From Bacilli bacterium (GTDB lineage Bacteria; Bacillota_I; Bacilli_A; RF39; UBA660), in assembly GCA_017450205.1 (NCBI GenBank), contig JAFSVF010000021.1, positions 1 through 52,292 of the forward strand: 52,292 nucleotides of DNA, read 5' to 3'. Below the pieces are notes generated by a model. It was given only the letters and a program-made list of their open reading frames with translations, had not been told where the DNA came from and searched no databases. Below, in pieces: positions 3,741 to 22,018 of this stretch. A program made the translations under genes and the position numbers. Positions within the stretch are counted from its first letter, which is position 1, and each line of letters begins with the position of its first letter.

Positions 3741-3769
3741 TGACATGAAAAAAAATTATGAATATAATT
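3741..3769 (+). promoter_or_regulatory. Consensus sigma-A promoter of the surface locus
   Basis: TTGACA (3741-3746), a 17-nt spacer and TATAAT (3764-3769) match the vegetative consensus at every base. Such a perfect promoter is rare in this window, where most promoters are extended -10 only, and implies strong transcription of the surface-protein genes from 3851 onward. Confidence 0.88.
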
Positions 3770-3850
3770 TAAGTATATTATAGAGGATATCAAAATTAAG
3801 TGTATAATAATCTCTGATATGCTTAAAAGACATGAAGGGCGAAGCAGACT
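3770..3850 (+). promoter_or_regulatory. Possibly structured 5' leader, class unknown
   Basis: About 75 nt separate the likely transcription start from the ATG at 3851. ATATCA can pair with TGATAT, and GCTT with AAGC, giving two helices, the second containing the GAAGGG Shine-Dalgarno-like sequence in its loop. I compared it mentally with S-box, preQ1, c-di-GMP-I/II and purine consensus cores and recognised none. It may only be a folded untranslated region. Confidence 0.3.
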
Positions 3851-4549
3851 ATGGATGATAAGAGAATAACTTCAACTATTAAAAGATATAAACATCAAAA
3901 GAAAACCAACAAAATAGTTAAAGTACTTTTATTATCTATTTTTTTTATGCTTATACTTTTATATTTTGTATTTGGTATTATTTATAATAATGAAAGTTTT
4001 TGTATATCTTTAGACAGTAACCTTTATTATGAACAAGGAGTAATCATTTATGATGATCCTAATTATAAAGTTTATAGGTCTGAGTTATATGCAAAGTCAC
4101 CTGAGTCTTTTGACAATATCTCATACAAATGGCTTCCCGAAGATATTGACGAAAGTAATGGAGGTTCGCATAACGGCAAAAACTATTTAGCTTATACTTT
4201 CTTTGTTGAAAACACAGGAAGTCAAGTAGTTGATTACTATAGTGAGCTATTAGTTGATGACGTTATCAAAAACGTCGATGAGGCAGTAAGAATTCGCGTC
4301 TATAAAAACTCTGAATTTGTAACTTATGCTAAACTGTCTGCAAAAAACACACCTGAGAAAGAAACTACTCCGTTTGCTAAGGATGGTGTAATTACGGTTG
4401 ATCATAAAACTGATTTTAAACCCGGAGACATTGACAAGTATACAATAGTTTTATGGATTGAGGGTTCTGATCCAGAATGTAATGATAATATTCTGGGCGG
4501 TGAAATCAAAATTTCGATGAATTTTGTTTCAGAACATACAGAGATTTAG
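3851..4549 (+). CDS. Membrane-anchored surface protein, first gene of the fibre-like operon
   Basis: A 232-residue protein with a basic cytoplasmic N terminus, one membrane helix (about 23-45) and an extracellular beta-rich domain. The C-terminal segment TIVLWIEGSDPE...GGEIKISMNF matches the ending (VRVYIWIEGQD...KKISV.F) of the proteins at 4564, 5915 and 7375, so it shares their fold. It lacks the TYAWF cleavage motif, so it probably stays membrane-anchored as a base or assembly subunit. It lies 14 nt before the next gene, behind a consensus promoter. Codon use is less AT-biased than its neighbours (CCC, GGC, CGC appear), suggesting separate origin or expression constraints. Precise function unknown. 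Confidence 0.7.
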   Translation: MDDKRITSTIKRYKHQKKTNKIVKVLLLSIFFMLILLYFVFGIIYNNESFCISLDSNLYYEQGVIIYDDPNYKVYRSELYAKSPESFDNISYKWLPEDIDESNGGSHNGKNYLAYTFFVENTGSQVVDYYSELLVDDVIKNVDEAVRIRVYKNSEFVTYAKLSAKNTPEKETTPFAKDGVITVDHKTDFKPGDIDKYTIVLWIEGSDPECNDNILGGEIKISMNFVSEHTEI

Positions 4550-4563
4550 AAAGAGGAGAAAAC

Positions 4564-5844
4564 ATGAAAAAGAAACACAGCATGCATATTAGAAAAACAA
4601 GACGTCTATTTTTTATATGCGCTATTATGGCATTAATTTTAACTACTGGAACATACGCATGGTTCGTTGGTATGAAAACAGTTAATGTCTCAAGCTTCGA
4701 TGTTGAAATTGCAGCAATCGATGGCTTATCGTTATCATTAGATGGTGTTGCTTGGTCAGATACAGTTTCTATTAACCAAGAAAACTTCAAAGAAGTAAAT
4801 ACATCTAATAATACAAACAGCTGGGGTGGAAGTGGATTAGTTCCAGTATCATCTGTAGGTATAATTGATACAGATGCATCTAGAATGATCATGTATGAAA
4901 AGGGAAGTTTTGCTACTACACCAGGCGGCTTTAGAATTATGGCTAGTCAAGTTGAAAATACAGCTGAAGGTCAACTTGAACAAGATGGATACGTTGCTTT
5001 TGATTTATTTGTTAAAAACCTTTCAGGTAAAGAATATTATAAAGATCTAAACGTATTAAATGAGGAACCAATTTATTTAACTCCTGATTCAGCAGTAACA
5101 GTTTCAACTAACGGTGGAGTTGCTGGAACTGGTATTGAAAACTCAGTTAGAGTTGGTTTTGCTCAAATCGGTAGAGTAGAAGCTACTGAAACAACTCAAT
5201 CAGTAATTACTGGTATCACTTGTAGTTCTGATACAAAAGTTACTGGAATATGTGCTGATCGTTCTGCACAAATTTGGGAACCAAATGATAAATATCACGT
5301 ACAAAATGCAATCAATTGGTACGCAACTTCTTGTAAGAAAAGAAGTGGTGCTGATTTAACACAAGCATCATCTTATGATGGTTCTTGTAATACATTAACT
5401 GATGGACTATATGTACAAACTAACGCTATCAGTGGTGTTATTGATTACAGAGACCAAGTAGATGTATACGATGGAGCTGACTACAATGGCTATACAGCTA
5501 GTATCTCTGATACAGCTCAAGCAGGTAAATTATTTGCTTATGATTATTTCACAGACTCTGAAAAATCATTAACTGGCGTTAATCGTCCAACTTTCATTAC
5601 TTTAGCTCCAAACAGTATTACTAAAGTAAGAGTATATATTTGGATTGAAGGACAAGATGTTGATAACTATGACTTTGCTTCATTAGGAAAGAAAATATCT
5701 GTTGCATTTGGTCTATCTAAGGAAAGATTCTATGACGAAGACTTTAACTATGAAAATCCAGAAGGTGCTGATCTTCCATCAGACGTAGTTAAAGAAAATC
5801 ATCCAGCTTACCAATATACAAAAGAAGAAAACGCTGGAAACTAA
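4564..5844 (+). CDS. SipW-type secreted surface/fibre subunit A
   Basis: A 426-residue protein with basic N terminus, hydrophobic helix (about 15-30) and TYAWF (30-34). This matches the SipW-dependent signal peptide class used by TasA and camelysin, which is cut after T-x-A. The mature part is beta-rich with blocks shared with the next gene: YVAFDLFVKNLSG, GTGIENSVRVGFAQIGR, AQIWEPND and KVRVYIWIEGQD. Cys in ITCSS, TGIC, TSC and GSC could form disulfides. AGAGGAG ribosome binding site 5 nt upstream. Signal peptidases of the matching SipW type lie downstream in the same locus. Likely a structural subunit of a surface fibre or matrix; polymerisation is inferred. Confidence 0.72.
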   Translation: MKKKHSMHIRKTRRLFFICAIMALILTTGTYAWFVGMKTVNVSSFDVEIAAIDGLSLSLDGVAWSDTVSINQENFKEVNTSNNTNSWGGSGLVPVSSVGIIDTDASRMIMYEKGSFATTPGGFRIMASQVENTAEGQLEQDGYVAFDLFVKNLSGKEYYKDLNVLNEEPIYLTPDSAVTVSTNGGVAGTGIENSVRVGFAQIGRVEATETTQSVITGITCSSDTKVTGICADRSAQIWEPNDKYHVQNAINWYATSCKKRSGADLTQASSYDGSCNTLTDGLYVQTNAISGVIDYRDQVDVYDGADYNGYTASISDTAQAGKLFAYDYFTDSEKSLTGVNRPTFITLAPNSITKVRVYIWIEGQDVDNYDFASLGKKISVAFGLSKERFYDEDFNYENPEGADLPSDVVKENHPAYQYTKEENAGN

Positions 5845-5855
5845 TAAATAATAAT

Positions 5856-5898: not shown

Positions 5899-5914
5899 TA
5901 AGAAAGGAACAATT

Positions 5915-7291
5915 ATGAAAAATAACAGAAAAAGTAGAAAAATAAGAAATCTTGTTGTTATTTGCTTTCTTTGTGCTATTTTAATTGGTGTTGGAACATA
6001 TGCATGGTTCGTAGGTATGAAAACAGTTAATGTTTCTTCATTCGATGTTGAAATTGCTACAACTGAAGGTTTATTCTTATCTATGGATGGTGAGAATTGG
6101 TCTTATGAATTAGATGCAAAGAATGCAACTTCATACACAGGAAATACAAATACATGGGCTGAAAATGGTCTTATTCCTGTTTCATCTGTTGGTGATGTTG
6201 ATGCTTTAGCTTCAAGATTACAACTTTATGAAAAGGGTAGTTTAGCTACTACTAAAGGTGGATATAGATTACTTGCTAGTCGTGTACACAATTATGATAA
6301 AACTGAAGATGGTAAAAATGGATTCATTGAAGGTGACGGATATGTTGCATTCGATTTATTTATTAAAAACCTTTCAGGAAATGAATACTATACAGATAAT
6401 AATGTATTAAATGAAGAAGATATCTTCTTAACAACTAACTCAGAAGTTAAAGTTGCAACTAGTGGTGGTGTTGCTGGAACTGGTATTGAAAACTCAGTAA
6501 GAGTTGGTTTTGCTCAAATTGGTAGAGTTGAAGCTACTCCTGGTGTAGCATCAACAAATAATATTACTGATATTACTTGTACAAATGTAGCTGCTGGTGA
6601 AGGTCAAGCTCAAGTTACTGGTATTTGCCGTCAAGCTCAAATTTGGGAACCAAATGATACTAAACACGTACAAAATGCTATTAACTGGTATGAAACAAGT
6701 TGTAATACAAGAAAAGAAGATGGAGAAGACTTAACTTTAGCATCATCTTATAATGCTGATAAATGTAGTGGTGTTGTTGATGGAACAAGCAACAAAACTT
6801 ATGCTATTAGTAGAGTAATTGGTATTGATGATAATGTTGATATTTATGATGGTGAACAATATAATACTTACTTAGCTAACAGTGTTGTATATAATGCTTA
6901 CAATAATGCAGTTAACTTAAATGCTGCATCATTAAAACAAACTTTAGATGCTGAATCTGCAGCTGCTGCTGAAGAAGCTAAACTTGCAGCTCGTGCAGAT
7001 TATAAGTTAGTAGATTTCCCATACTTCACTGATACAATGAAGAATTTAACTGGTACTTCTAGACCAACATTTATGACTTTAGCTCCAAACAGTATTACTA
7101 AAGTTAGAGTATATATTTGGATTGAAGGACAAGATATTGATAACTATGATTTCGCATCATTAGGAAAGAAAATCTCAGTTAACTTTGGATTTACTAAGGA
7201 AAGATATACTGAAGGGGATATTAATTATCAAGGACCATCTACAGATATCACTCCAAAAAATGAATCTTCATCAGAAACTAATGAAGGATAA
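5915..7291 (+). CDS. SipW-type secreted surface/fibre subunit B (paralogue of A)
   Basis: A 458-residue close paralogue of the protein at 4564, clearly a tandem duplicate: TYAWFVGMKTVNVSSFDVEI is identical in both, as are GGVAGTGIENSVRVGFAQIG and LAPNSITKVRVYIWIEGQD. TYA is at residues 28-30. It differs mainly by a ~40-residue Ala-rich, probably helical insertion (NAASLKQTLDAESAAAAEEA region) before the conserved C-terminal block. Cys residues are kept at equivalent places. AAGGAAC upstream of the ATG. It is flanked by strong stem-loops on both sides. Probably the second major subunit of the same surface structure. Confidence 0.72.
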   Translation: MKNNRKSRKIRNLVVICFLCAILIGVGTYAWFVGMKTVNVSSFDVEIATTEGLFLSMDGENWSYELDAKNATSYTGNTNTWAENGLIPVSSVGDVDALASRLQLYEKGSLATTKGGYRLLASRVHNYDKTEDGKNGFIEGDGYVAFDLFIKNLSGNEYYTDNNVLNEEDIFLTTNSEVKVATSGGVAGTGIENSVRVGFAQIGRVEATPGVASTNNITDITCTNVAAGEGQAQVTGICRQAQIWEPNDTKHVQNAINWYETSCNTRKEDGEDLTLASSYNADKCSGVVDGTSNKTYAISRVIGIDDNVDIYDGEQYNTYLANSVVYNAYNNAVNLNAASLKQTLDAESAAAAEEAKLAARADYKLVDFPYFTDTMKNLTGTSRPTFMTLAPNSITKVRVYIWIEGQDIDNYDFASLGKKISVNFGFTKERYTEGDINYQGPSTDITPKNESSSETNEG

Positions 7292-7374: not shown

Positions 7375-8511
7375 ATGGCTAATAAAAAGGTAGTTAAGAG
7401 TGTATCAAGAAAAAATAAAAAAATAAAAACTAGAAAGAAAACAAATAATATAATGAATTCAAATAAGAATCAAGATTCATTATTAACGAGATTAATTACT
7501 AAAAGAAATGTAAGTATATTTGTTATTTTTATGGTAGGTGTTTTATTGATATTTTCTTCGTATGCATGGTTTTCTACATCATTAAATGTTAAAATTAAAG
7601 AATTTAATATGATAGTATCAAGGAATAGTGGACTTTCTATTTCTTTTGATGGAATTAATTTTGATAAGGCTATTGAAATATCTCGTGATACATTGATAAA
7701 TGGATTAACAAAAACTTATCCAAATCATGTTAATCAATGGGCTGCAACTGGTCTTACGCCTGTTTCATCAAATGGAATAAGTAATAATGATTCTTACTTT
7801 TTTGATATATTTGCATCATCGGGTGTTAGATATAAGAATAAACAAAAGACTCATGGTTTTATTAATACTACAAAAGTTATTGATACAAAACCTAGATCAT
7901 TTAATAATTATATAGCTTTTGATATATTCTTTAAAAATGAAACTGGATCACCAATAGCAGATAACCTTTATTTTGATGAAGGAACAACAGCTTATATGAC
8001 GTCTGATTCTGGTGATGAGATGCAAGGACTTGTAAATTCTTTAAGAATTGGAATTGTTAAGGTTGGTACTGCTCCGATAGATGCAGATCCAAAAACAATT
8101 CAAAATCTTCAATGTAATCATGATTGTAAATCAGTTATATTTGAACCAAATAGTACCGTTCATACAATGCTTTCTAGAGAAAGAGCAGCAAAGTATAATC
8201 TTGACTTAAAAGATAATGAAGAGTTTCCTACGTTTGCTATGACTAATGCAGGAGGACCTATTTATGTTGAAGATAATATATCTGGTTCTAGTAAAATTGA
8301 TTATAATTATTTTTCACTTCAAAATACTATAAAAGAAAGAGATTTTGATAAACCTTTGTTTACAGTACCTGATGGTATTACAAAAGCTCGTGTTTATTTA
8401 TGGATTGAAGGACAAGACATTGATAGTTTAGAAACTGATTCTACTGGTGCTGAAATTTATGTTGATATTAATTTCATTAAAGATACTAGCGGATATCAAT
8501 CATTCAATTAA
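7375..8511 (+). CDS. SipW-type surface protein C, divergent paralogue
   Basis: A 378-residue protein with a long Lys/Arg-rich cytoplasmic leader (residues 1-45), a hydrophobic helix and SYAWF (62-66). It keeps the family blocks in diverged form: YIAFDIFFKN, LVNSLRIGIVKVG, VIFEPNS and KARVYLWIEGQDID. The 60-residue N-terminal extension is much longer than in its two paralogues and would delay or regulate membrane insertion. AAAGGTG ribosome binding site. It is probably a minor subunit or adaptor of the same structure. Cleavage by SipW is inferred from the motif; Ser replaces Thr at -3. Confidence 0.68.
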   Translation: MANKKVVKSVSRKNKKIKTRKKTNNIMNSNKNQDSLLTRLITKRNVSIFVIFMVGVLLIFSSYAWFSTSLNVKIKEFNMIVSRNSGLSISFDGINFDKAIEISRDTLINGLTKTYPNHVNQWAATGLTPVSSNGISNNDSYFFDIFASSGVRYKNKQKTHGFINTTKVIDTKPRSFNNYIAFDIFFKNETGSPIADNLYFDEGTTAYMTSDSGDEMQGLVNSLRIGIVKVGTAPIDADPKTIQNLQCNHDCKSVIFEPNSTVHTMLSRERAAKYNLDLKDNEEFPTFAMTNAGGPIYVEDNISGSSKIDYNYFSLQNTIKERDFDKPLFTVPDGITKARVYLWIEGQDIDSLETDSTGAEIYVDINFIKDTSGYQSFN

Positions 8512-8528: not shown

Positions 8529-8669
8529 ATGTTAAATGAAAAAGTTGATTTTGATTTATCTCTTCTTTCATTAGAAGAATTAATAGAAGTTTTTAATGAT
8601 ATTGATTCATTTATTCAATATCTTATTGATAGTAAAATAGAAGTAGAAAAGGAAGATGGAAATGCATAA
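8529..8669 (+). CDS. Small acidic protein (46 aa), coupled to the next gene
   Basis: A 46-residue acidic protein (MLNEKVDFDLSLLSLEELIE...) with a strong GAAGGGAG site upstream. It has no membrane segment. Its last 14 nt overlap the start of the 530-residue gene at 8656, so the two are translationally coupled and probably act together, for example as a small cytoplasmic partner or chaperone. No family recognised. Confidence 0.62.
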   Translation: MLNEKVDFDLSLLSLEELIEVFNDIDSFIQYLIDSKIEVEKEDGNA

Positions 8670-10248
8670 CTTTTTTGATTTTATTAGTAATGATATCGAA
8701 GTCAAAAAGACATTTTTGTCTTCGCTTCCTACTAAAACTAAAACAAATATAAAAAAATATAATTCTTCGATAGATGAATTTGTTAAGAAATATACGTCTT
8801 ATAGAGAAAGTGTATTTAATTATATTAAAGCTAAAAAGAAAGCTTTAAATGTACCTGAAGTTAAAAAAGATTTTAATAAAGTTAATAAGAAAATAGAAAT
8901 ATTAGAAAAAGGTAGAAATTTACTTAATCCTCTTAATACAAGTTATGAGAAAATGGGATTTGATGATTTACTTTATAGAATGAGTAATTATTATGTTTTT
9001 AACTTTGAATCAATTGATAATCTTATTAATGAATTTATTGATAAATTTGCATTAGCTGGAATTAATCTTGAAGCTAAAGATTTTAAATATAATTATTATG
9101 TTCATAGATATATGGATGTATTCTTAAGTGTAAGAGCAGAATTAAAAACACAAGATGATTTAAATGTTACATTTGAAGAAATCTATTGGGTTAATCCAGA
9201 TATAATTAGTCATATTGAAATAAACTTCCGTAAACTTATTAAAAAGAATATGAGAAAGTTTGATTCTTATATTGCTAAGATAAGAAAAGAATACATTAAA
9301 GAATATTATATTTCTTCTTATAATAGTTGTATTGAAAAGTTAAAGTCTGCATATTTAGAAAAAGAAAAACTTAATGATGAAGATATATCTGATATTGTAG
9401 AAAAAGCAATTAATAAAGAATTTGATATTTCTCAATATTTAGAATCTTCTAAATTTAGAAAGTCGGCATATTCTTCTTTCTTATCTGAAAATGTAGATAT
9501 AAATGATAAAGAAAATATGAAGGTTATATGTAGTTTATTAAGTAAGTTATCTTTTAACTTAGAAGAATATGAAGGATATTTAAGTATTCTTCCAATAATA
9601 GATTCTTTTAAAAAAGAATATGAGGATATAAAAGATAAGAAGAATAATAATTCATCTGAATTAAAAAGTATTCAATCTTCTATAAAAAAAGAAGAAGCAT
9701 CTCTTGCTAAAATTAATACTAAAATTTTAAGAGGTAATAAAGATAAGAATTTAAAGATGGAATCTATTAATATTACTAAGAAATTAAAAGAACTTTATAG
9801 AAAATATGATGATGAATTCTTTAAATCAAGAGTATTATCTATACTTAATCCTAATATGACAGTATCAGATGTACTTGAATTATTTTTAAGTTTTGATTAC
9901 TTTAAAAAATTAACTATTCAAAAAGTATATGAAATAAATGATTATAATGAAGTGATAAAACAAAGTAATATTTATGATGAATTTGCTAAAAATCCTACTA
10001 ATTTAATTGTTAAAGGATTGCCAGTTTTCGAAAAGAATAATATTCCAAGAATTATAGCTAATAAGTATAAATTAAATAATTTGCTTATTACTGAGGAGGA
10101 TATTACTCCTGATAATTTAGATGCTTTAAAAAATAAGATAGCATTAATTACTCGTGTTAATAAAATTAATAATAGTAATACAACAGTTGAGAAAATTTGG
10201 TTTATAGTAAATGCTAATAAAATTATTGAAAAAATGAAGGCAGAATAA
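8656..10248 (+). CDS. Large cytoplasmic helical protein of unknown family
   Basis: A 530-residue Lys-rich protein without signal peptide or membrane segment. It is predicted almost entirely helical, with a coiled-coil-like stretch around residues 325-395 (KSIQSSIKKEEASLAKIN region). I recognise no domain or catalytic motif. It is the only large cytoplasmic protein between secreted subunit genes, translationally coupled to the 46-residue gene before it, and its stop codon lies inside a terminator that ends this transcription unit. Context suggests a cytoplasmic assembly or scaffold factor for the surface locus; this is inference only. Confidence 0.6.
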   Translation: MEMHNFFDFISNDIEVKKTFLSSLPTKTKTNIKKYNSSIDEFVKKYTSYRESVFNYIKAKKKALNVPEVKKDFNKVNKKIEILEKGRNLLNPLNTSYEKMGFDDLLYRMSNYYVFNFESIDNLINEFIDKFALAGINLEAKDFKYNYYVHRYMDVFLSVRAELKTQDDLNVTFEEIYWVNPDIISHIEINFRKLIKKNMRKFDSYIAKIRKEYIKEYYISSYNSCIEKLKSAYLEKEKLNDEDISDIVEKAINKEFDISQYLESSKFRKSAYSSFLSENVDINDKENMKVICSLLSKLSFNLEEYEGYLSILPIIDSFKKEYEDIKDKKNNNSSELKSIQSSIKKEEASLAKINTKILRGNKDKNLKMESINITKKLKELYRKYDDEFFKSRVLSILNPNMTVSDVLELFLSFDYFKKLTIQKVYEINDYNEVIKQSNIYDEFAKNPTNLIVKGLPVFEKNNIPRIIANKYKLNNLLITEEDITPDNLDALKNKIALITRVNKINNSNTTVEKIWFIVNANKIIEKMKAE

Positions 10249-10260
10249 TGCCTTTTTTTT
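10237..10260 (+). terminator. Terminator ending the first surface transcription unit
   Basis: AAGGCA pairs with TGCCTT around GAATAA, followed by eight T. The stem contains the stop codon of the preceding gene. Confidence 0.8.
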
Positions 10261-10276: not shown

Positions 10277-10313
10277 AAATTTAATAATAGTGACCAGCTA
10301 AGTGGGTGAGTGC

Positions 10314-13300
10314 ATGATGAAAAATAAAAAGTTTATTTTATTCATTATATTAGTTTGCAGTTTTCTTTTTATTAGTGTTTTAATCCCTTCGTTAGCTAAG
10401 CTAGTAACTTCTAAAACTTCTATTAATAATGAATGGAATGGTAGCATTGCGTCTTCTTTTAATAGTGGATCAGGTACTATTGATTCTCCATATATTATTT
10501 CTAATGCAAGTGAATTTGCTTATTTTAAAGAAACTTTAAAAAAAGATGATTATAAAAATAAATATATTAAGATTACTAATGATATTATTCTTAATTCAGG
10601 ATTATTTAAAGATGATGAAAAATTAGAATATATTAAAGATGATGTTACTTATTATTTAGATAGTAATAGTGATAAATATTATGAAGATAATTCTTTTGAT
10701 AACTATGTTGGTACTATTAATGAATTTGAAACTTTAAAAACGTTTAATGGTACTTTAGATGGTGATAATCATACTATTTATGGCTTATATATTAAAGAAG
10801 ATAATAGTTCTTTATTTGAAAATATCGGTGGAAATATTAGTAATTTAATAATTGAAAATGCTTATATTTATGGTGAATATAGTTCAGCAGGATTAACGCT
10901 TAATAGTAATGAATCAATTATTAAAAATGTTATAGTTGATGGTAATATTTTAAGTAATGGTAATGAAACTCAATATATGATTAGTAATAATATTGATGAT
11001 TTAGTTATTGATGACGAAGCTACTCTTAATATTAATGTTAACTTACCTGATACTAGTGATTATAAATTTCTTTTAAGTGGTACATGTACTGGAGATACTT
11101 CATTTACTGTTGATGGAAAAGTTATTCCATGTAAAGATTTTGAAGTGAATGTTAATCCTTTTAATTTTAATATTCAAACAAATTCTAGAATTTATCTTAC
11201 TAATTTAAAATATAATTATTCATATGATACAAGTATAAGTGCTGGAGTAATTTTAAAAGCAAATGATTCAAGTGTTGAAAATGTTGTTAATAGAGCAAAT
11301 GTTAAAAACAAGTTAGCTTCTGGTATTGTAGGAATACTTAAAAATACTAATATATCTAAATCTTATAATTTAGGTAATATTAATGGTAATAAATCTTCTG
11401 GTTTAGTTGATACAATTATTTCATCAAATTCTTCTTTAAATTATATTTATAATGAAGGAAATTTAACTAATAATTCAGCCGGTTTAGTAAGTAATATAAT
11501 TGATTCTAATATTGATATTAGTAATAGTTATAATACATATAATACAAGTGCTTTAGGAAATATTGATAACTCTTATTTATCTATAAATAATTCATATAAT
11601 AAAGTACCTGATGATGATTTCTTAACTTATAATAATAATTCAATAAGAGTATTATTTGATAATGATGACTTTATTTATGATGAAGCTCCTTTAATAAAAC
11701 TTGATTATGATAATTTAAAATATGTAAATATTGTTTTAAATGATAAAGTTTGGAATTCTTATAAAGAAGATGTTGATTTTCTTAGTTATGATGAAAATTT
11801 ATCTTTAATATTAGTAAGTACTAAAGAGTATAAAGCAATTAAAGGTGTATATTATTATTTATCAGAAGATGAGTTATCTAAAGAGAATTTAGATAATATT
11901 AATTGGAATGATTATAATACTCCGATTAGTCTTAAAAAACGTGGAACATATATTTTATATGTTAAAGTAATTAACTATAATGATGAAGCTACTTACTTAA
12001 ATACAGATAGAATTTATTTATATGTAGATGATATATATGCTTCAATAAAAGTGGATGATAAAACTTATGATGATTTACATAATCCGGATTATTGTTTTAT
12101 AAATAATAAAAAAATTGAAATAAATGCTTACAGTAAAAATGATATTAAGAGTATTAAATATTTAGTAAGCGATATTGCTTTTGAACAAAGTGATTTAGAA
12201 GTAAATATTTCTTGGATAACATATCAAGAATCTATAAGTATAAAGAATGATTCAATTATTTATGTAAAAGTAGAAGATAATAACTCTAATATCATATATC
12301 TTAATAGTGATCATTTTATTGATACTAAATATAATATTACAAATTTAAAATCAGGTAATGACTTAAAGTTTAATAGCAATATGACATATAATTCATCAAT
12401 TAGTTTTAATGTTCTACTTGATAATAGTGATGTTACATTAAATGGATTTGAAAGAAGTATTATAAGTAATGAAGTTCTTCCAATTAATACTCATATTGTT
12501 ATTAATGATTTAACAAATAATAAAATATATGAATATTTTGTTAAAGAAAATGAAGAAAAAGAAATATTATTAAGTAAGTTTAATGAAGCTGGAGTAACAA
12601 GTGAAATTAATTATTCTAATGAATATACTAATAAAGATAAATTTCATATAATAATTGATTTTAAAAATATTGAAGAAACTGAAAAGGAATATAATATTTT
12701 CTTTAAAGCTAAAAGAGTGAGTGAAGAATTAACTAGTGATACTATTAGTTTTAAACTTAATAGTTCATTAGATGATATTAATAGTAAATTGAATATTATT
12801 AATGTAGGAAATAATATTTCTATAAATTATAATTATTTATCAACAACTATTATTAAATTTAATACTTCGTTTAATAGTACATATTTAAATACTAATTTAG
12901 AAGATTTAGACAAAACACTTATTATTGAAGTAATTGATAAAGATAACAATATAGTTAATAAAGATAAATATAAAAGTCTTAAATTTATTTATAATGGAGT
13001 AAGTTATTCTCCGAATAATACTAATAAAACACTTATTAAATTAGATAATTTAAATAATATAGGAGAAACACTTACTATTAAAACAAGTGAAGACATAAGC
13101 GGTTTACTTGATGGTGATAATACTTTAAAAATAACTCTTGGATTAACATTTAATAACTTAATTAAATATAGAAGTAATAATTCTATAAATATACCAATTG
13201 TTATTAATAAAAGAGCTAATAATTATGGTTTTGGTATAAGTACAAATAAAAGAATAATAAGTGCAAATGATTTATTTAAATTTAATATTAATGCTAGTAT

Positions 13301-14077: not shown

Positions 14078-14821
14078 ATGAAAAAAAGAATAATAGTTTT
14101 AATTGTTTTACTAGTAATAGTATCTCTGTTTTCTATTGGTAGAACATTTTCAAAATATATAAATACAACAAAATGGGATTATTCTTATAATTCTAAAGAT
14201 TTCTATTTTACTAGTGATTATTTAAGTGAAGAAGAAAAAAATCTTTATTTTAATTCTTGGGATGGATCTGATATTAAATTTAATATTAGTAATGCTCTTA
14301 ATAAAGATACATATACAAAAGAAAACATTACTTATGAGGTAAGTTGTTTATCAAATGAGACAACTTGTTTAATAAATGGTAAAAGTATTATTACTTTAAC
14401 TTTAAAAGGTAATGTTTATTCGAATGAAGAATTAAAGTTATCTCTTGGTGAATTTCAAGATAATGCAAATGTAACAGTTATTGCTAAGAGTATAAAACCA
14501 TATAAAAAGACATTACAAGCTACATTTGATGTAATTAGAGAGACTAAAGTAAATGATATTGATTATAAATTAAAAACTTATGATTATGTATCTAAACTTC
14601 TTATAAATAATAATAGTGATACTAATAAATGTATTAATGTTAAAATTCTAAAGGATAATATAAGAGTATCTAAAAGTGATGATATGAAGAATATTAAAAC
14701 TAATAGTAATGATGTAATTAATTCTTTTGAAATAGTCTTAAATTCTAGTGAAGATAAAATAATTGAATTATATGGAAATGGTATTAGTGATGAGGATGTA
14801 ATAGTTCAATTATGTGATTAA
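14078..14821 (+). CDS. Secreted surface protein, TFSKY signal
   Basis: A 247-residue protein with a short hydrophobic signal (residues 3-20) ending in GRTFSKYIN, a variant of the SipW-cognate TxSxY motif seen also at 13547 and 22044. The extracellular part is beta-rich and contains Cys pairs in SCLSNETTC and near residues 188 and 246 that could be disulfides. AAGGGGG site 6 nt upstream of the ATG. It is the third gene of the 10314-14821 unit. Specific role unknown; likely another component of the surface assembly. Confidence 0.6.
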   Translation: MKKRIIVLIVLLVIVSLFSIGRTFSKYINTTKWDYSYNSKDFYFTSDYLSEEEKNLYFNSWDGSDIKFNISNALNKDTYTKENITYEVSCLSNETTCLINGKSIITLTLKGNVYSNEELKLSLGEFQDNANVTVIAKSIKPYKKTLQATFDVIRETKVNDIDYKLKTYDYVSKLLINNNSDTNKCINVKILKDNIRVSKSDDMKNIKTNSNDVINSFEIVLNSSEDKIIELYGNGISDEDVIVQLCD

Positions 14822-14890
14822 CTATTGCATGTTTAAAATAACTATGATAATATTATTTTCGTAATAATAAGTATAGACAAGGTGGTAATT

Positions 14891-15436
14891 ATGAAGACTT
14901 TAAAGACAATAAAAAATATACTTATGGGAATACTTGGAACTGCTTTTTATGCATTTGCATTAATAATGACAATTCTTTTATTAAACTTTAATAAGTTTGG
15001 TGTAACAGAATTTGGGGATAAATCACTTATAATTCTTACACAAGAAGTATCTAATGAGAATTATAAAAAAGGAGATTTAATCATTGCTCAAAAAACTAGA
15101 TATGACATGATTAATGTTGGTGATGAAATATTTACTTATTCAGTTAATTCTAAAGGTGTTGCAACAGTAGAAATTGGCAAAGTAGGAGAAAAGTATGATA
15201 AAGAAAAAGCTATTTCATTTGAAAATGGTGCTTCGTTCTCTGAAGAGTTTATAATTGGTAAAGCTACTAAAACTTATAATAATTATGGAACAGTGCTTTC
15301 TATTATTGAATCTAAATGGGGATTCTTATTTATAGTATTAGTTCCTGGATTTATAATTTTCTTATATGAAATTTATGCTTTAATTGTTGAAATTAAATAT
15401 GGTGATGAAGATGAAAAAGAGGATTCTAAAAAATAG
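14891..15436 (+). CDS. SipW-like signal peptidase homologue lacking catalytic residues
   Basis: A 181-residue protein with membrane helices at about 10-33 and 144-168, like SipW-type (ER-type) signal peptidase I. Strand order matches the active homologue at 15535: LIILTQEVSNENYKKGDLII aligns with the SVFEVQTGSMKPTISPSDVI segment, NVGDEIFTYS with NVNDIITYK, and FIIGKATKTYNNYG with IIGKVIHVLPKFG. The SGSM nucleophile motif and the THRV histidine are both absent. Start 14891 follows AAGGTGG. I infer a pseudo-peptidase that binds substrates or regulates the two active enzymes. Alignment was made by eye. Confidence 0.6.
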   Translation: MKTLKTIKNILMGILGTAFYAFALIMTILLLNFNKFGVTEFGDKSLIILTQEVSNENYKKGDLIIAQKTRYDMINVGDEIFTYSVNSKGVATVEIGKVGEKYDKEKAISFENGASFSEEFIIGKATKTYNNYGTVLSIIESKWGFLFIVLVPGFIIFLYEIYALIVEIKYGDEDEKEDSKK

Positions 15437-15534: not shown

Positions 15535-17475
15535 ATGAGTACAGCTATAAGAAAAACTTGCAATATTTTTTTAGATTTTTTAATAATTTTATTAGGAATA
15601 ATAATACTTATTAATGTGTATTCTTATATACAAATTAAGGCATTAAATAAAAGTTATTCCTCTTTTTTTGGCTATTCAGTTTTTGAAGTACAAACTGGAA
15701 GTATGAAACCTACTATTAGCCCTAGTGATGTAATAATCATTAAAAGTGATAAGAATCCAAATGTAAATGATATTATTACTTATAAGAATAATAATGATTT
15801 TATTACTCATAGAGTAGTAGAAAAATCAGGTAATACTTATATTACTAAGGGAGATGCTAATAATACTCGTGATAATGCTATTACAAATGATGAAATAATT
15901 GGTAAAGTAATACATGTATTACCTAAATTTGGAATAATTAGAAAAACAATCTTAAATCCTTTTGTTATATTAACTTTAATAATTACTACATTTATTGTTT
16001 CTAGTTTATTTAATAGGAAAAAGAAGAAAAAGTTTACTGTTGATAAAAAAGATTTAGTTGAATCTACTCCAATGAAAATAGATACATCTAATATTAAAGA
16101 AGATTCTGATGATATTGAAAAAACAGTAAAAAATGTACTTAATAATAATCTTGTAGAAGAATCTAATGAATTAGATGCTGAGTCATTAAGTGAAGATGAT
16201 TTAGATAAAACTATTGTATTTAGAAAAGTTTCAGTAGATGCTGAAGACTTAAATCCTCCGGCTCCAATTATTGAGGAAGAGGAAACTGAATCTACTGAGG
16301 AAGTAATTGAAGAAATTGAAAACGAAGATGAAGAAAAGAATACAGAATTAAAATTAAAATATTTAAATAAACGTAAAAAGAAATTTAATAATATTTTAGA
16401 AAAAATTATGTATTTTAAAGAAGAAGAGATATCTGAACTTACAAATATTATTTATACTTCTAAATTTAAAAAAGTAAATGAAGCATCTATAAAGAATGAA
16501 CTATTAAAGATCTATATAGATGGTAAGTATTATAATCAAGTTGGTAATGTTGATGCTGATTATGATAATAAGAATATGAATTATAGACTTGGAAAAGTAA
16601 TTACAAGTGAAAGTGAAAAACTAATAAAATCTTATAATGGTAATGATAAATTATATTCTGCTAAAGTAGAATTTATTACTAATATATTTATAACTATTCT
16701 TTATATTGAAAATATATTTACAAGCGATATAGAACTTGATGAAAAGATTGTTAAATATAAAGAAAAAATAAATAAATATTTAAAAGGTTATTATGAGAAT
16801 GATTCTGATTTAACTGATGTTGTTAAAAAATTAATAGTTTGTGAAAAAACTTATAGAAGTGCTGTTAATAAATTACTAGATTCACTTAAAACAAATACTT
16901 TTGAACTAGAGTTTAATGAACTAACTACTAAGAAAAATATATATGCTTTAAAACTTAATCATAATATTAATTTTAGCAAGCTTTATAGCGATTATATAAT
17001 TGATAAAACTTATGATGAGGGTATAGTAGCTGAAGATAAAATACTTGTTACAATTAATATTTTACTTGGTAGAATTGCTCAAGATATATTATCTTGTAAT
17101 ACTGATAATACATATCTTTTATATATGCCTGAAAGTTTATATGAAAAGAGTAATAAGCTAAGTAAAGTTGAAAGTATGTTTAGTGATGAAATGGTTAGAA
17201 ATAGAGTAATACTTGTTAATAGGAGTGATTCTATTACTAATAATAAAAAGACTATTAAACAAATGAAGAAGAATGGTTTTAGATTTGGTTTATTAATAAA
17301 TGATAGTGATAAAAAAGTAACTGATAAAACTAGTATTTCTTTAATAGATTGTATATTTGTAGATAAAAATCTTGATAAAGAGTTAAAAATATCAAGTACA
17401 TTAAAAAGTAATTCAGAGATTAATGTTGTTAAAGAAAATATTAATGACTTAATTGATGTTTCAGGGGGTGCTTAA
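15535..17475 (+). CDS. SipW-type signal peptidase fused to large cytoplasmic domain
   Basis: A 646-residue protein. Residues 1-160 are a complete SipW/ER-type signal peptidase I: N-terminal helix (about 9-32), TGSMKP with nucleophile Ser56, ITHRV with His92, KGDAN with Asp107, and a C-terminal membrane helix (about 142-160). A Lys-rich stop-transfer then leads to an acidic linker (about 180-275) and about 370 further residues with no known domain. The tail (YLLYMPESLYE, VILVNRSD, GFRFGLLIND, DCIFVDKNL) faintly recalls EAL phosphodiesterase strand order without its catalytic residues. Ordinary SipW proteins are about 190 residues. It starts an operon with 3-14 nt gaps to the ATPase genes, so cleavage and the ATPase may be physically linked. 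Confidence 0.75.
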   Translation: MSTAIRKTCNIFLDFLIILLGIIILINVYSYIQIKALNKSYSSFFGYSVFEVQTGSMKPTISPSDVIIIKSDKNPNVNDIITYKNNNDFITHRVVEKSGNTYITKGDANNTRDNAITNDEIIGKVIHVLPKFGIIRKTILNPFVILTLIITTFIVSSLFNRKKKKKFTVDKKDLVESTPMKIDTSNIKEDSDDIEKTVKNVLNNNLVEESNELDAESLSEDDLDKTIVFRKVSVDAEDLNPPAPIIEEEETESTEEVIEEIENEDEEKNTELKLKYLNKRKKKFNNILEKIMYFKEEEISELTNIIYTSKFKKVNEASIKNELLKIYIDGKYYNQVGNVDADYDNKNMNYRLGKVITSESEKLIKSYNGNDKLYSAKVEFITNIFITILYIENIFTSDIELDEKIVKYKEKINKYLKGYYENDSDLTDVVKKLIVCEKTYRSAVNKLLDSLKTNTFELEFNELTTKKNIYALKLNHNINFSKLYSDYIIDKTYDEGIVAEDKILVTINILLGRIAQDILSCNTDNTYLLYMPESLYEKSNKLSKVESMFSDEMVRNRVILVNRSDSITNNKKTIKQMKKNGFRFGLLINDSDKKVTDKTSISLIDCIFVDKNLDKELKISSTLKSNSEINVVKENINDLIDVSGGA

Positions 17476-17478: not shown

Positions 17479-19005
17479 ATGAATACATTTTTTAGATTTT
17501 TTTACGAATTTATTTCTATATTCTTTGATGGTATCGGAGATATTCTTAAAGGATTTAAAGATGGAATAGTTCGTATTGCAAATTTTAATGATTATTCTAA
17601 AGTAATTAATTCTTATAAAGGTAGTTTTAATACTGGTGAATGGGTTTTTGTGTGGATTTCTGTAATTATTCTTTTAGTTCTTGTTGGATTAGTTATATTC
17701 TTAATTGTTCGTAAAATTAAGAATAAAGTTACTAGAAATTATAATTCAATGAATAAAGAAGAATTAGTTGAAGAAATATCTAATTTAAATGATAAAGTAG
17801 CTAAACTTATGAAAGAAAAAGAAGAACTAATGGCTATGAAAGTTAGTCAATTAGGAATTAATCCTGATGATAAAGGTAAAAAGAGTAAGGATGAGAATGA
17901 AGAAGATAGCGAAGACGGACCTAGTGATATTCGTTTCCCAAAACTTACTATGATTGATAAAAAGTATGCTAACTTTGTTCCTAAAAAATATGATAATAAT
18001 TATACTTTAGATGGACTTATTGAAGACTTTAGATGCTTTGCTGCATCTCAATTAAAACTCTATTATGATCCAGTTATTTTAAGACCATTCTTTGCAGGTC
18101 TTGCTTGTGGTAAGTTAATAATTTTACAAGGTATATCTGGTACTGGTAAAACATCTCTTGCATATGCTTGGGGTAAGTTTGTTAAACAAGATTCATGTGT
18201 TTCTTCAGTAGAACCTTCATGGAGAGATAAATCTGATTTTCTTGGATATGTTAATGAATTTACTAAGAAGTTTAATGAAACAAAAGCTTTAGGCGAAATA
18301 TATGTATCAGGTTTTGATGATGATATACATACAATTATTCTTGATGAGATGAACCTTGCTCGTGTTGAATATTATTTTGCTGATCTTTTATCAATACTTG
18401 AAATGCCTGATAGAGATGAATGGCTTGTTGATATAGTTCCATCTGCTTGGCCAAATGATCCTAAAAAATTAGTTAATGGAAAACTTAGATTACCAGGAAA
18501 TCTTTGGTATATAGGTACAATCAATAACGATGAATCAACATTCATGGTTACTGATAAGGTATATGACCGTGCTATGCCAATTGATATTAATATTAAAGTT
18601 GATCCATTTAAATGTAGAGAACAAGAAGCAATTGATATTAATGCGAGTTACCTAGAATCTTTATTTGATGAAGCAAAAGAAAAATATCCTTTATCAGATA
18701 AAGGATTAAAACAAGTTAAAGAACTTGATGATTATATTATTAAACATTTTAGAATTGCTTTTGGTAATCGTATTATGAAACAATTAAATGTCTTTACATC
18801 AGTATATGTTGCTACTGGAGGAAAAGAAGTAGAAGCAATTGATTATTTCGTTGCTAAGAAGATATTAAGAAAGTTTGATCAATTAAGTGTTTCTTTCTTA
18901 AGAGATGAAATTGATCCATTTATATCGTATTTAAATAAAACTTATGGTAAAGGTACAATGAAAGAGTGTATTGAATACCTAGAAAATACAAAGAAGAATT
19001 TATAG
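17479..19005 (+). CDS. Membrane-anchored McrB/MoxR-like AAA+ ATPase
   Basis: A 508-residue protein with one membrane helix (55-78), a coiled coil (about 90-120), an acidic linker and an AAA+ module: Walker A GISGTGKT (218-225), Walker B IILDEMN (Asp289, Glu290), sensor 1 IGTINND (345-351) and arginine-finger candidate Arg364 in DKVYDRA. LDEMNLARVEYYFADLLSILE is typical of the helix-2-insert (McrB/MoxR) clade. The MNxxDR signature of true McrB GTPases is missing, so ATP is the likelier nucleotide. It lies 3 nt after the signal peptidase fusion and 14 nt before the DUF2357-like gene. Probably a membrane-localised remodelling engine of the surface locus. Confidence 0.8.
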   Translation: MNTFFRFFYEFISIFFDGIGDILKGFKDGIVRIANFNDYSKVINSYKGSFNTGEWVFVWISVIILLVLVGLVIFLIVRKIKNKVTRNYNSMNKEELVEEISNLNDKVAKLMKEKEELMAMKVSQLGINPDDKGKKSKDENEEDSEDGPSDIRFPKLTMIDKKYANFVPKKYDNNYTLDGLIEDFRCFAASQLKLYYDPVILRPFFAGLACGKLIILQGISGTGKTSLAYAWGKFVKQDSCVSSVEPSWRDKSDFLGYVNEFTKKFNETKALGEIYVSGFDDDIHTIILDEMNLARVEYYFADLLSILEMPDRDEWLVDIVPSAWPNDPKKLVNGKLRLPGNLWYIGTINNDESTFMVTDKVYDRAMPIDINIKVDPFKCREQEAIDINASYLESLFDEAKEKYPLSDKGLKQVKELDDYIIKHFRIAFGNRIMKQLNVFTSVYVATGGKEVEAIDYFVAKKILRKFDQLSVSFLRDEIDPFISYLNKTYGKGTMKECIEYLENTKKNL

Positions 19006-19019: not shown

Positions 19020-20153
19020 ATGGGTAAGAAAAAGACAATTACAATAGAATCTTCTCTTTTTAAAAGAAAAGAGTCATTTGTTAAGAATACAACATCTGAA
19101 ATGTATTATACAATGAATAATTCTTGTGATGCTCTTAACTTTGAATGGCTTGATAAAATTGAAGATACTTGCCCATTTATTGATCAAATTGTTAGACATC
19201 CTAAATTAACACTTGTTAAAGAAGAAGTAGTTTCAACTATTGAAAGAGCTAAGAAGATTACTTCTGAAAGTGTTAAAGATTTAGCTAAACATTCAAATTA
19301 TATAAATGATATTGAAGAAGAAACCGGAGATATAAGACCTTCTAAAATATTAGAAATAAGAAATGAAGAAACCTTTAATATTTATGAAAATAGATTTCTA
19401 TATACTTTTATTCATGATTTACAAAGATTTATATTTGAAAGAGAAGATGAACTTAATAGTATTATTTTAGGTAATAATAAGTCATTAGAATATAAAGCTG
19501 AATCTTTAGAAGATGGAGAAAAAATTAATATTGAACTTAAGATTACTTCTGAACAAAAAGAAAATAGTAATAAAGATAATAATATTGAAAATCTTATAAA
19601 TAAACAATTAGAACGTATTAAAGAGGTAAAAGAATTCATTAATAGTTGGTATAAAAGTGATGTATTTAAAGAATTAGATAAATTACATGTTCCTTTTATT
19701 AAACCTCCTGTTAAACCTACTAATATTATTCTTAAGAATCCTAATTTCCAATTATCTGTACAAATGTGGGAATATATTAGAAATTATGGTAATAATCTAG
19801 ATGAAAAAGATAATGAAGCACTTGTTAGTGCAGGAAATGAAGCATTAAAATCTCTTTTAGATAATTCATTTCTAATTGATTATTTTGTTATGGATTCTGT
19901 ATCAAAAAGAAAAAGAGAAGAAAAAGAAAAGATTAATAATTATTCAATTATTCTTCTTGCAGATATGATAAGAAGAGTATTAGATTTACTAAGAATAAAT
20001 GGTAAAGATATAAGTGAAGAAGAATTATTAAATATTCTTTTAAACCAAGTACGAATAGAACAAGAATCTAGACTTGCTGGTATAGAAGATATTAAGAAAA
20101 AATTTAAGTCTGAAATAAATGAATATTTAGAAAGGACTTTAAAAAATTTATAG
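19020..20153 (+). CDS. DUF2357/McrC N-domain-like partner of the AAA+ ATPase
   Basis: A 377-residue soluble protein. IYENRFLYTFIHDLQRFI (about 120-140) matches the ENRF helix of DUF2357, the N-terminal domain of McrC that docks on McrB rings, and KPTNIILKNPNFQLSVQMW (about 240-260) resembles its second conserved block. McrC proteins usually end in a PD-(D/E)XK nuclease; here the C terminus is helical (LLADMIRRVLDLLRI...) with no such motif. It follows the ATPase by 14 nt and precedes a signal peptidase by 9 nt. I infer an adaptor stimulating or targeting the ATPase, without DNA cleavage. Family assignment is by eye. Confidence 0.6.
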   Translation: MGKKKTITIESSLFKRKESFVKNTTSEMYYTMNNSCDALNFEWLDKIEDTCPFIDQIVRHPKLTLVKEEVVSTIERAKKITSESVKDLAKHSNYINDIEEETGDIRPSKILEIRNEETFNIYENRFLYTFIHDLQRFIFEREDELNSIILGNNKSLEYKAESLEDGEKINIELKITSEQKENSNKDNNIENLINKQLERIKEVKEFINSWYKSDVFKELDKLHVPFIKPPVKPTNIILKNPNFQLSVQMWEYIRNYGNNLDEKDNEALVSAGNEALKSLLDNSFLIDYFVMDSVSKRKREEKEKINNYSIILLADMIRRVLDLLRINGKDISEEELLNILLNQVRIEQESRLAGIEDIKKKFKSEINEYLERTLKNL

Positions 20154-20162: not shown

Positions 20163-20732
20163 ATGAAAAAAATATTAAATAACAAAGTAGTAAAAATAAT
20201 AGCAGGTTTTCTTAAAGGAATATTTATGCTTATGCTTATACTATTTATATTAATGGTATGTTTACAAAGATTTAGTAATAATGAAATATCATTATTTAAT
20301 TTTAGAATGTTTACTGTTATATCTGGTAGTATGGAACCTAAATATAAAATAGGTGATGTACTTATTTCAGTTGAAACTGATCCTAAAGATATAAAAGTTG
20401 GAGATGTAGTTAGTTATCATGGTGAAAAAAGAGATGTTAAAGGTAAAGTAGTAACTCACCAAGTAATTAATATAGAAAAAGATGATCAAGGTAAATATTA
20501 CTTCCATACTAAAGGTATTTGTGAAAACTGTTTGGTTGAAGATCCAGTTGTTGAAGAAAGCCAAGTGTATGGAGTAGTTAAATATAAAGTAAAAACTTTA
20601 TCAGCTATATATAAAGTAGTTGGTACTAAAGTAGGATTATTCTTCTTTATCATACTTCCTTTATTCTATATAATTGGTTCTGAAATTATTTATTCATTAT
20701 TAGAAAAAGAAGAAGAAAGAAGAAAGAAATAA
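20163..20732 (+). CDS. sipW: SipW-type signal peptidase I
   Basis: A 189-residue ER/SipW-type signal peptidase (family S26B) with Ser/His rather than Ser/Lys chemistry: SGSMEP (nucleophile Ser56), KIGDVL, VVTHQV (His99) and KVGLFF... leading into the C-terminal membrane helix. N-terminal helix at about 14-34. Length is normal for the family. In Bacillus subtilis SipW processes TasA and TapA, whose signal peptides share the TxA motif seen in this locus. AGGAGGG site 4 nt before the ATG; 9 nt after the DUF2357-like gene. Likely the processing enzyme for the TYAWF proteins. Confidence 0.85.
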   Translation: MKKILNNKVVKIIAGFLKGIFMLMLILFILMVCLQRFSNNEISLFNFRMFTVISGSMEPKYKIGDVLISVETDPKDIKVGDVVSYHGEKRDVKGKVVTHQVINIEKDDQGKYYFHTKGICENCLVEDPVVEESQVYGVVKYKVKTLSAIYKVVGTKVGLFFFIILPLFYIIGSEIIYSLLEKEEERRKK

Positions 20733-20767
20733 GTTAAGAGATTTATATAAACGAAAGGGATGATTTT

Positions 20768-22000
20768 ATGTTTAAGAAAAGACATAAAGTTTATCTAAAA
20801 TTAAATTTAGTCTCGATAGTATTTGCAGTTGTTTCGTTTATATCAGTAAGTTTTGCGTGGTTTGCTTACAGTGGGCTTGTTGATGTTAAAACAGAGGTTG
20901 GTGTAAAAGCTTGGTATATTGAATTTGAAAAGAATAATGAAGTTGTTTCTAATGATATAGTTATTTCTTTATCAGATCTTTATCCAGGTATGGAACCATT
21001 AAGTGAAGTTATAACTATTAAGAATTTAGGAGACTCTGATGCTAAATTAAAATATAGCATTGATTATGCACGTATATTGGATGACGATAAAGATTATTAT
21101 ACATTAAGTGATGATTATACGAGTGAGAGAATTGAAGATGCTTTATCTCATAATTATCCTTTTTCTATAAATGCAGCTCTTAGTAAAACAAGAATTAATG
21201 CTAAGGATTCAGATGCTGAATTTATTGTAACAGTTTCTTGGCCTTTAGATTCTGGTAATGATATGCTAGATAGTACATGGGGTTCTAAAGCATATCAATT
21301 TGAAAAGAAACAAGATGAGAAGAAAAAGAAAGACTCAAGTTATAATAAAGAACCTTCAATTAAGATAGGTATTGATGTATCAGCACAACAAATAACTGAT
21401 GATGTTGATGATTTAGATTATGATTTCGAATTTGGTAAAGTTGTTTTATTTGATGTAAAAAATAATATGATTTGTTCATCTTTAAGTGAAAATTGTTTAA
21501 AGACATATGTAATAGATGATGCTAATTTAATAGGAGATAAAAATGTATCTTTACTACCTGATATAAGTAGTTTAAATGTAGAAGGTAACTTTAATAATTA
21601 TAAGAGTATATTTGATGAAAGGGTAAGCTCTTGGAATGTAAAAACAAGAGAACTTGAAGCAAAAGATATACTTAAAGTTGTATCAAAAGATATTAATTCA
21701 TCTTTAATAGTAACTCCTAATATATCAGATGCTATTTTAGGAACTGTGAAGTATGGTACTAGAGCAGAAACAATGCTTACTAAAGTAGGAAGTACTAATG
21801 GTTATATAAGTTATGATAATAAATTTAAATTATTTAATACTATTCAATGTGTATGGACTAGTACTAAATATAATAATGAAAAAGGTTATGCTTATAGTTT
21901 AGATGATAATAAATCTAAATTATATGGTGAGAGTAATAATACAACTTGTAATATAATACCTGTTATAGTTGCTCCAAAATCAAATATAATATCAGACTAA
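20768..22000 (+). CDS. SipW-type secreted protein, camelysin-like domain plus C-terminal domain
   Basis: A 410-residue protein with SipW-type signal (FAWF at 29-32). Residues 40-180 follow the TasA/camelysin pattern (LSDLYPGMEPLSEVITIKNL). A charged linker (KKQDEKKKKDSS) leads to a second domain ending CVWTSTKYNNEKGYAYSL...IIPVIVAP, which recalls the short W-S-T repeats of bacterial surface carbohydrate-binding or Fibrobacter-type paralogous domains. Cys residues occur in that domain. AAAGGGATGA site upstream; last gene of the rightward locus, followed by a terminator. Probably a surface component; the C-terminal domain may be a binding module. Confidence 0.62.
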   Translation: MFKKRHKVYLKLNLVSIVFAVVSFISVSFAWFAYSGLVDVKTEVGVKAWYIEFEKNNEVVSNDIVISLSDLYPGMEPLSEVITIKNLGDSDAKLKYSIDYARILDDDKDYYTLSDDYTSERIEDALSHNYPFSINAALSKTRINAKDSDAEFIVTVSWPLDSGNDMLDSTWGSKAYQFEKKQDEKKKKDSSYNKEPSIKIGIDVSAQQITDDVDDLDYDFEFGKVVLFDVKNNMICSSLSENCLKTYVIDDANLIGDKNVSLLPDISSLNVEGNFNNYKSIFDERVSSWNVKTRELEAKDILKVVSKDINSSLIVTPNISDAILGTVKYGTRAETMLTKVGSTNGYISYDNKFKLFNTIQCVWTSTKYNNEKGYAYSLDDNKSKLYGESNNTTCNIIPVIVAPKSNIISD

Positions 22001-22018
22001 TAGTCTGGTATTTTTTTA
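21988..22018 (+). terminator. Terminator ending the rightward surface locus
   Basis: AATATCAGACT pairs with AGTCTGGTATT (one G-T pair), followed by T7. It overlaps the stop codon of the gene at 20768. Confidence 0.82.

What the first reader, a model, noticed from the sequence alone, without database searches (positions are those of the whole stretch)
3741..22018. Surface-fibre locus combining SipW-type secretion with an McrB/DUF2357-like AAA+ pair
Seen: at least seven secreted or anchored proteins, six with SipW-type motifs (TYAWF, SYAWF, TYSLY, TFSKY, FAWF, TYSRY), three SipW-like peptidase homologues and a McrB/MoxR-like ATPase plus DUF2357-like protein. Gaps of 3, 14 and 9 nt join peptidase fusion, ATPase, DUF2357-like protein and second peptidase. 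Known: SipW exports TasA-type matrix fibres in Bacillus; McrB and McrC are known from restriction. Inference: here the AAA+ pair powers or gates assembly of a surface structure.
Basis: partly seen in the sequence, partly recalled or inferred. Interest (0 to 1): 0.93.

Follow-up and report, generated by a model that had tools for sequence, protein, structure and literature searches.

The report
McrB-type motor in fibre-export locus
In an uncultured bacterium, one gene cluster encodes proteins predicted to be exported as surface fibres, the signal peptidases that would cut them, and an ATPase pair related to the DNA-restriction system McrBC that likely drives or gates the fibres' assembly.

Summary
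In detail: seven proteins with SipW-type signals, three SipW-like peptidase homologues (one without the catalytic Ser/His), an McrB-family AAA+ protein and a DUF2357 (McrC N-domain) protein without a detected nuclease lie in tight gene order. It is not a chance neighbourhood: in the 80 closest loci of other genomes the EAL-like part precedes the ATPase in 78 and DUF2357 follows it in 78 (the rest are contig ends), and a SipW peptidase comes next in 74 of 76. ATPase/DUF2357 + signal peptidase is already in print as "CoCoPALM" (Bell et al. 2024, a few sentences), so that association is not new. New here: (1) the gene before the ATPase ends in a predicted degenerate EAL fold (best match FimX, a c-di-GMP receptor acting on a pilus ATPase); (2) in other families of the class, real EAL proteins lie in 32 of 53 such loci (about 2 expected); (3) the main exported subunits share a C-terminal WIEGxD signature; (4) some ATPase-pair loci lack SipW but sit beside large, apparently exported proteins. 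Best reading: a membrane-anchored McrB-like ring with a DUF2357 activator powers or gates assembly of SipW-processed fibres under an EAL-fold regulator. Motor and gating are inferred.

The parts
3740..3768 (+). perfect sigma-70 consensus promoter (TTGACA-17-TATAAT) before the first gene
   Evidence: 12 of 12 bases; promoter-like sites as a whole are fewer than in shuffles, 125 against 167.9
3851..4549 (+). predicted exported protein 'a' (232 aa), N-terminal helix, C-terminal WIEGSD signature, no SipW motif by the rule
   Evidence: relatives in 32 of 80 loci by profile
4564..5844 (+). SipW-type exported subunit (TYAWF), WIEGQD signature
5915..7291 (+). SipW-type exported subunit (TYAWF), WIEGQD signature
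7375..8511 (+). SipW-type exported subunit (SYAWF), WIEGQD signature; predicted beta-rich fold, weak best match TasA fibre
8656..10248 (+). 530-aa protein without membrane helix, relatives in 29 of 80 loci; function unknown
10236..10255 (+). terminator-like hairpin after the 530-aa gene; may split the locus into two transcription units
   Evidence: 9 such sites found, 2.5 expected
10302..13541 (+). 1079-aa predicted exported protein
   Evidence: relatives in 35 of 80 loci
13547..14068 (+). SipW-type exported protein (TYSLY)
14078..14821 (+). SipW-type exported protein (TFSKY)
14882..15436 (+). SipW-like pseudo-peptidase: two membrane helices kept, catalytic Ser and His lost
15535..17475 (+). 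fusion: SipW peptidase with Ser and His kept + ~500-aa part behind its second membrane helix
16888..17451 (+). predicted degenerate EAL fold in the fusion (residues ~452-639); a separate gene in other genomes, some of the same genus
   Evidence: separate gene
17479..19005 (+). McrB-family AAA+ NTPase with N-terminal membrane helix and NxD motif
19020..20153 (+). DUF2357 protein (McrC N-domain) without detected nuclease domain
20163..20732 (+). SipW-type signal peptidase, Ser and His kept
20768..22000 (+). SipW-type exported protein (SFAWF)
21988..22012 (+). terminator-like hairpin at the end of the plus-strand genes
22044..22655 (-). SipW-type exported protein (TYSRY), convergent; a reverse-strand relative follows within 8 genes in 55 of 80 loci

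Best explanation
This locus encodes a CoCoPALM-type system in which a membrane-anchored McrB-family AAA+ protein and its DUF2357 partner, which has no detected nuclease, likely drive or gate the assembly of surface fibres whose predicted subunits would be cut by the locus's own SipW-type peptidases. Shown: gene content and order, conservation, the McrB family with NxD motif, a hydrophobic helix with positive charge behind it, DUF2357 without a detected nuclease, Ser/His kept in two peptidases and lost in the third. Predicted: the EAL fold fused to one peptidase. Inferred: (1) cargo leaves through Sec and waits in the membrane by its SipW-type signal; (2) the AAA+ domain faces the cytoplasm and forms a ring, as McrB does; (3) DUF2357 activates it, as in McrC; (4) the dead peptidase, the helix of the ring and the fused peptidase hold ring and cleavage together; (5) the EAL-like domain relays a signal to the ring, as FimX does to PilB; (6) NTP hydrolysis extracts, orders or polymerises subunits during or after cleavage.
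Confidence: 0.5

Rival explanations
1. Quality control: the AAA+ pair does not build fibres but extracts stalled or uncut SipW-type preproteins from the membrane, or unfolds them; the surface structure assembles by itself, as TasA does.
For: TasA fibres form by donor-strand exchange, and the paper's main text does not mention an ATPase ('atpase' 0 times); AAA+ rings commonly act as unfoldases (general knowledge); the ring's anchor next to the peptidase fits either role.
Against: Strict gene order with cargo and, in other families, EAL proteins argues for a dedicated partner; three other SipW-family loci of this genome manage without it.
Confidence: 0.22
2. Signalling: the pair plus EAL-fold part is a regulator that senses secretion or cell-surface state and controls the operon or c-di-GMP, without touching the fibre.
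For: EAL protein pairs lie upstream in other families; degenerate EAL fold in this family; FimX is a c-di-GMP receptor (abstract).
Against: No DNA-binding or output domain found in the window's pair; the fusion of the EAL part to a peptidase places it at the cleavage site.
Confidence: 0.13
3. Defence: the pair is a type IV restriction-like or abortive system that happens to use surface genes as sensors or neighbours.
For: ATPase matches PADLOC candidate PDC-M26A at 1.1e-36; the McrB/DUF2357 family is known from restriction.
Against: No PD-(D/E)xK family such as PDDEXK_7 among the 25 of 38 families shown for 29 DUF2357 proteins, though one member hit SwaI-like endonuclease at E 0.013; a membrane helix and no reader family at the ATPase's N-terminus; the same surface genes stay with it across families.
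Confidence: 0.1
4. Chance or hitch-hiking neighbourhood without functional link.
For: A serine recombinase gene lies 1.2 kb before the locus (955-2655).
Against: Recurrence of the order in the 80 closest loci and across families.
Confidence: 0.02

Closest known systems
CoCoPALM systems (Bell et al. 2024, PMC11090510; passages read)
   Same: McrB-like GTPase with NxD motif fused to a membrane helix, DUF2357 partner, signal peptidase genes beside it
   Different: The paper names them in a few sentences and defers the rest. No SipW cargo, EAL link, dead peptidase or peptidase-EAL fusion appeared in the passages read. The window's DUF2357 protein is short (377 aa), against 477-932 aa in the 13 other-family loci first fetched
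tapA-sipW-tasA of Bacillus subtilis (PMC9674648; passages read)
   Same: SipW-type peptidase and SipW-type signals; fibre subunits as cargo by inference
   Different: the operon as described there has no AAA+ pair and no EAL part; our cargo is not recognisable as TasA by sequence
McrBC type IV restriction (structures 6hz4, 6ut6, 7vsr)
   Same: AAA+ domain and McrC N-domain
   Different: no nuclease detected, no reader domain detected, membrane helix instead
PilB-PilZ-FimX of type IV pili (PMC8389850; abstract and outline read)
   Same: an EAL-fold protein next to an ATPase of surface filaments; a works-like comparison only
   Different: other ATPase family, other filament; PilZ was not looked for here
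PcdA of Staphylococcus aureus (PMC10602043; passages read)
   Same: McrB-family protein used outside restriction
   Different: cell division; EVE domains; no McrC partner

Membership tests
CoCoPALM | McrB-family NTPase with NxD motif | tested here: met
   N349/D351 invariant in A1; 77 of 77 and 51 of 53; McrB the only PDB family at E <= 0.1
CoCoPALM | membrane helix fused to the GTPase | tested here: met
   77 of 77 and 53 of 53 by hydropathy
CoCoPALM | FtsB homology / coiled coil on the GTPase | not tested
   a charged, E/K/L-rich stretch near residues 90-122 is seen by eye; no coiled-coil predictor was run
CoCoPALM | McrC N-domain (DUF2357) partner | tested here: met
   Pfam 46.1 bits, 29 of 29 members
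CoCoPALM | signal peptidase family gene beside it | tested here: met
CoCoPALM | place in the CoCoPALM clade of the McrB tree | not tested
   their sequences were not on hand
McrBC type IV restriction | PD-(D/E)xK nuclease on the McrC homologue | tested here: not met
   window protein: DUF2357 only; 29 relatives: no PDDEXK_7 among the 25 of 38 families shown, one member hit SwaI-like at E 0.013
McrBC type IV restriction | N-terminal modified-base reader | tested here: not met
   window ATPase: membrane helix instead, no reader family in Pfam at E <= 0.1
SipW signal peptidase | ER-type peptidase with Ser and His | tested here: met
   TIGR02228 over cut-off for two of three; S and H aligned; the third homologue fails both
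TasA family fibre subunit | recognisable sequence family | tested here: not met
   no PDB hit to TasA at E <= 1
TasA family fibre subunit | jelly-roll fibre fold | tested here: inconclusive
EAL domain | EAL fold | tested here: met
EAL domain | EAL sequence family | tested here: not met
   no Pfam EAL for the window part, nor among the 25 of 34 families shown for 37 members; none in the own genome
EAL domain | catalytic residues | tested here: inconclusive
   not matched in a weak profile alignment
c-di-GMP receptor | ligand binding | not testable with these tools
   needs a binding assay

The most novel reading that the evidence does not exclude
A c-di-GMP-gated surface-fibre machine built from restriction-system parts: an EAL-fold receptor (an EAL protein with complete active site plus a degenerate one in many families, a far more degenerate one fused to the signal peptidase here) switches an McrB/DUF2357 ring that pulls SipW-type subunits out of the membrane and threads them into donor-strand fibres, a FimX-PilB-like logic evolved independently in Gram-positive relatives.
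Probability: 0.27. Interest if true: 0.88.

Novelty: new variant of a known kind. Interest (0 to 1): 0.68.

Why it matters
If right, SipW-processed fibres, which in Bacillus subtilis assemble by donor-strand exchange without a known ATPase, would have a dedicated NTP-driven machine in many Bacilli; second-messenger control could act at the assembly step; and McrB/McrC parts would be, beside PcdA, another case of restriction machinery turned to the cell's own architecture.

Tried and rejected
Nuclease on the DUF2357 protein: not found; the own-genome search for PF04411 found nothing, but its 14 controls were silent too, so it proves nothing. TasA by sequence: none. The PDB search with the DUF2357 profile gave only a 109-residue protein named H12 at E 0.075, so no McrC structure was reached by sequence. 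The profile of the 410-aa exported protein matched nothing. NCBIfam gave nothing for ten exported proteins, three of the window and seven of relatives, and TIGR04088 (SipW-type signal) for only 3 of 27 relatives of the b/c/d family. The EAL-like part as c-di-GMP receptor in every genome: 2 of 17 genomes with the ATPase lack any GGDEF hit, so it cannot hold everywhere if those genomes are complete. Profile comparison of the EAL-like part with EAL domains: score 19.8 over 156 colinear columns against 12.7-16.1 for five unrelated profiles, but 15.3 against the EAL proteins with complete active sites and 21.0 over only 19 columns against the degenerate ones. EAL-like part in the 30 loci: only L165 (E 3e-7) matched convincingly among the rows seen. 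My first active-site count by regular expression was wrong for many peptidases and was replaced by alignment columns. In the Foldseek list for the cargo model the rows after TasA are unrelated proteins such as a glycosidase and leukocidins.

The EAL enrichment was noticed after 13 other-family loci had been fetched (7 of these 13 hold an EAL protein over 40 bits). The further 40 loci were picked from the ATPase list after I had seen EAL neighbours in some of their genomes, and several genomes gave two loci, so 32 of 53 is not an unbiased sample. EAL density was taken from the 80 of 149 genomes that have any EAL, which overstates the expectation.

Full report
WHAT IS THERE. The window is contig C15 of a 1.41-Mb, 28-contig genome. 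Its nearest named relatives by the ATPase (93% identity) are an uncultured Bacillales MAG and a Bacilli MAG. From a perfect consensus promoter at 3740-3768 the plus strand carries: four predicted exported proteins (a, b, c, d; 3851-8511), a 530-aa protein without membrane helix, a terminator-like hairpin (10236-10255), a 1079-aa predicted exported protein, two small SipW-type proteins, a SipW-like protein, a SipW peptidase fused to a long further part, the ATPase, the DUF2357 protein, a second SipW peptidase, a 410-aa SipW-type protein and a terminator-like hairpin; a convergent SipW-type gene follows. Another hairpin lies between c and d (7320-7353). All gaps named in the finding are exact.

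THE ATPASE PAIR. Pfam gives no AAA+ family for the 508-aa protein, but a profile of 11 sequences matches McrB structures and nothing else at E <= 0.1 (best 1.1e-5). Walker A, Walker B and the NxD form of the McrB motif are conserved. One hydrophobic helix (median start near residue 60) is followed by more positive charge than precedes it in 77 of 77 and 53 of 53 relatives, so the AAA+ domain should face the cytoplasm (inference, positive-inside rule). The partner carries DUF2357, the McrC N-domain that activates McrB (Bell et al., passages), as do 29 of 29 members; no nuclease family recurs.

CONSERVATION. EAL-like part directly before the ATPase: 78 of 80; DUF2357 directly behind: 78 of 80 with split ATPase calls allowed; all four exceptions are contig ends. 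SipW next: 74 of the 76 that go on (missing in L072 and L089). The EAL-like part is fused to a SipW peptidase in 50 loci and a separate gene in 25 (three more are cut by a contig end). The separate form also occurs in genomes of the same genus (G002, G004, G010), so fusion and fission lie close together. Of 60 genomes searched, own included, 13 have the ATPase; all 13 have a TIGR02228 hit over the cut-off, and so do 28 of the 47 without the ATPase. SipW thus does not need the ATPase.

PEPTIDASES. Aligned columns show Ser and His kept in every downstream, fused or separate peptidase counted, and lost in the 184-aa class (no His in 56 of 56; the Ser column is Ser in 5 of 56). That class occurs in 55 of 80 loci: a conserved dead SipW paralogue, perhaps a scaffold (inference).

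CARGO. The SipW rule hits 159 of 310 members of five cargo families (b/c/d, g, h, n, o) against 20 of 407 unassigned ORFs of the same loci; families a, e and f, left out of that count, gave 0 of 24, 0 of 29 and 3 of 34. A C-terminal WIEGxD signature marks families a and b/c/d only. The model of the 378-aa subunit (pLDDT 78) has the TasA fibre first in both comparisons; archaeal fibre proteins and FimA come next in the second one only, at values that may mean only a common arrangement.

EXCEPTIONS. Ten fetched loci have ATPase-DUF2357-ATPase' beside large proteins with predicted membrane helices, without SipW or EAL. L163-L166 (own family) have ATPase and DUF2357 but no SipW-like gene in the stretch; in L163 an ordinary-looking signal peptidase follows (my reading of the sequence). 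L158, L159 and L168 carry longer ATPase relatives with a SipW-like gene; in L159 an ABC-type ATPase follows (my reading). Five other-family loci have an ATPase without DUF2357 next to it. So the general partner of the pair may be surface-protein assembly, and SipW the commonest form of it.

PRIOR ART. Bell et al. 2024 (PMC11090510, passages) named CoCoPALM for this GTPase-DUF2357-signal peptidase link and announced a later paper. A full-text search for the term gave ten papers: two versions of that work and eight that look unrelated by title (listing). Searches for McrB/DUF2357, SipW, TasA, McrB and DUF2357 together, McrB + signal peptidase + EAL domain (none) and SipW, TasA, c-di-GMP and EAL together (listing) showed no report of the EAL link by title or abstract start; the held library lacks most subscription papers.

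VERDICT. Real, conserved, and a new variant of a named but uncharacterised kind. The motor-and-gate mechanism is the best reading at about even odds; the fibre nature of the cargo and the EAL gating are the weakest steps.

Noticed in passing
L239 (G000:C18:50000-69500), 9596-10708 minus: The same genome has a SipW peptidase next to a SipW-cognate exported protein (TIGR04088 33.4 bits, cut-off 19) without the ATPase pair: an internal comparator.
   Followed up: partly
L241 (G000:C1:20500-40000), 8197-14858: Another SipW locus in the same genome: a 382-aa protein with the peptidase at its C-terminal end, and a 1214-aa apparently exported protein.
   Followed up: no
L152-L157, L160-L162, L167: ATPase-DUF2357-ATPase' gene triplets beside large proteins with predicted membrane helices, no SipW, no EAL.
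   Followed up: partly
L158, L159, L168: Longer ATPase relatives (604-663 aa, 4-5 predicted helices) with a SipW-like gene; in L159 an ABC-type ATPase follows by my reading.
   Followed up: no
L163-L166: Own-family relatives of the ATPase pair without SipW; in L163 and L166 the next gene (419 or 433 aa) ends in a stretch resembling the cargo C-terminus by eye.
   Followed up: partly
L242 (G000:C13:8000-26000), 8073-8825 plus: GGDEF protein with intact GGDEF motif in a genome without a Pfam-detectable EAL domain.
   Followed up: no
window 955-2655: Large serine recombinase gene 1.2 kb before the locus.
   Followed up: no
window 24504-25385 and 27311-28210: Two radical SAM proteins close to each other.
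   Followed up: no
window 29730-33891: ABC ATPase followed by a 1143-aa FtsX/MacB-type permease.
   Followed up: no
L029 (G056:C24), 1081-6196 minus: An EAL protein (578 aa) directly precedes a truncated ATPase (202 aa), followed by a 705-aa DUF2357-type protein and a SipW-like gene.
   Followed up: no
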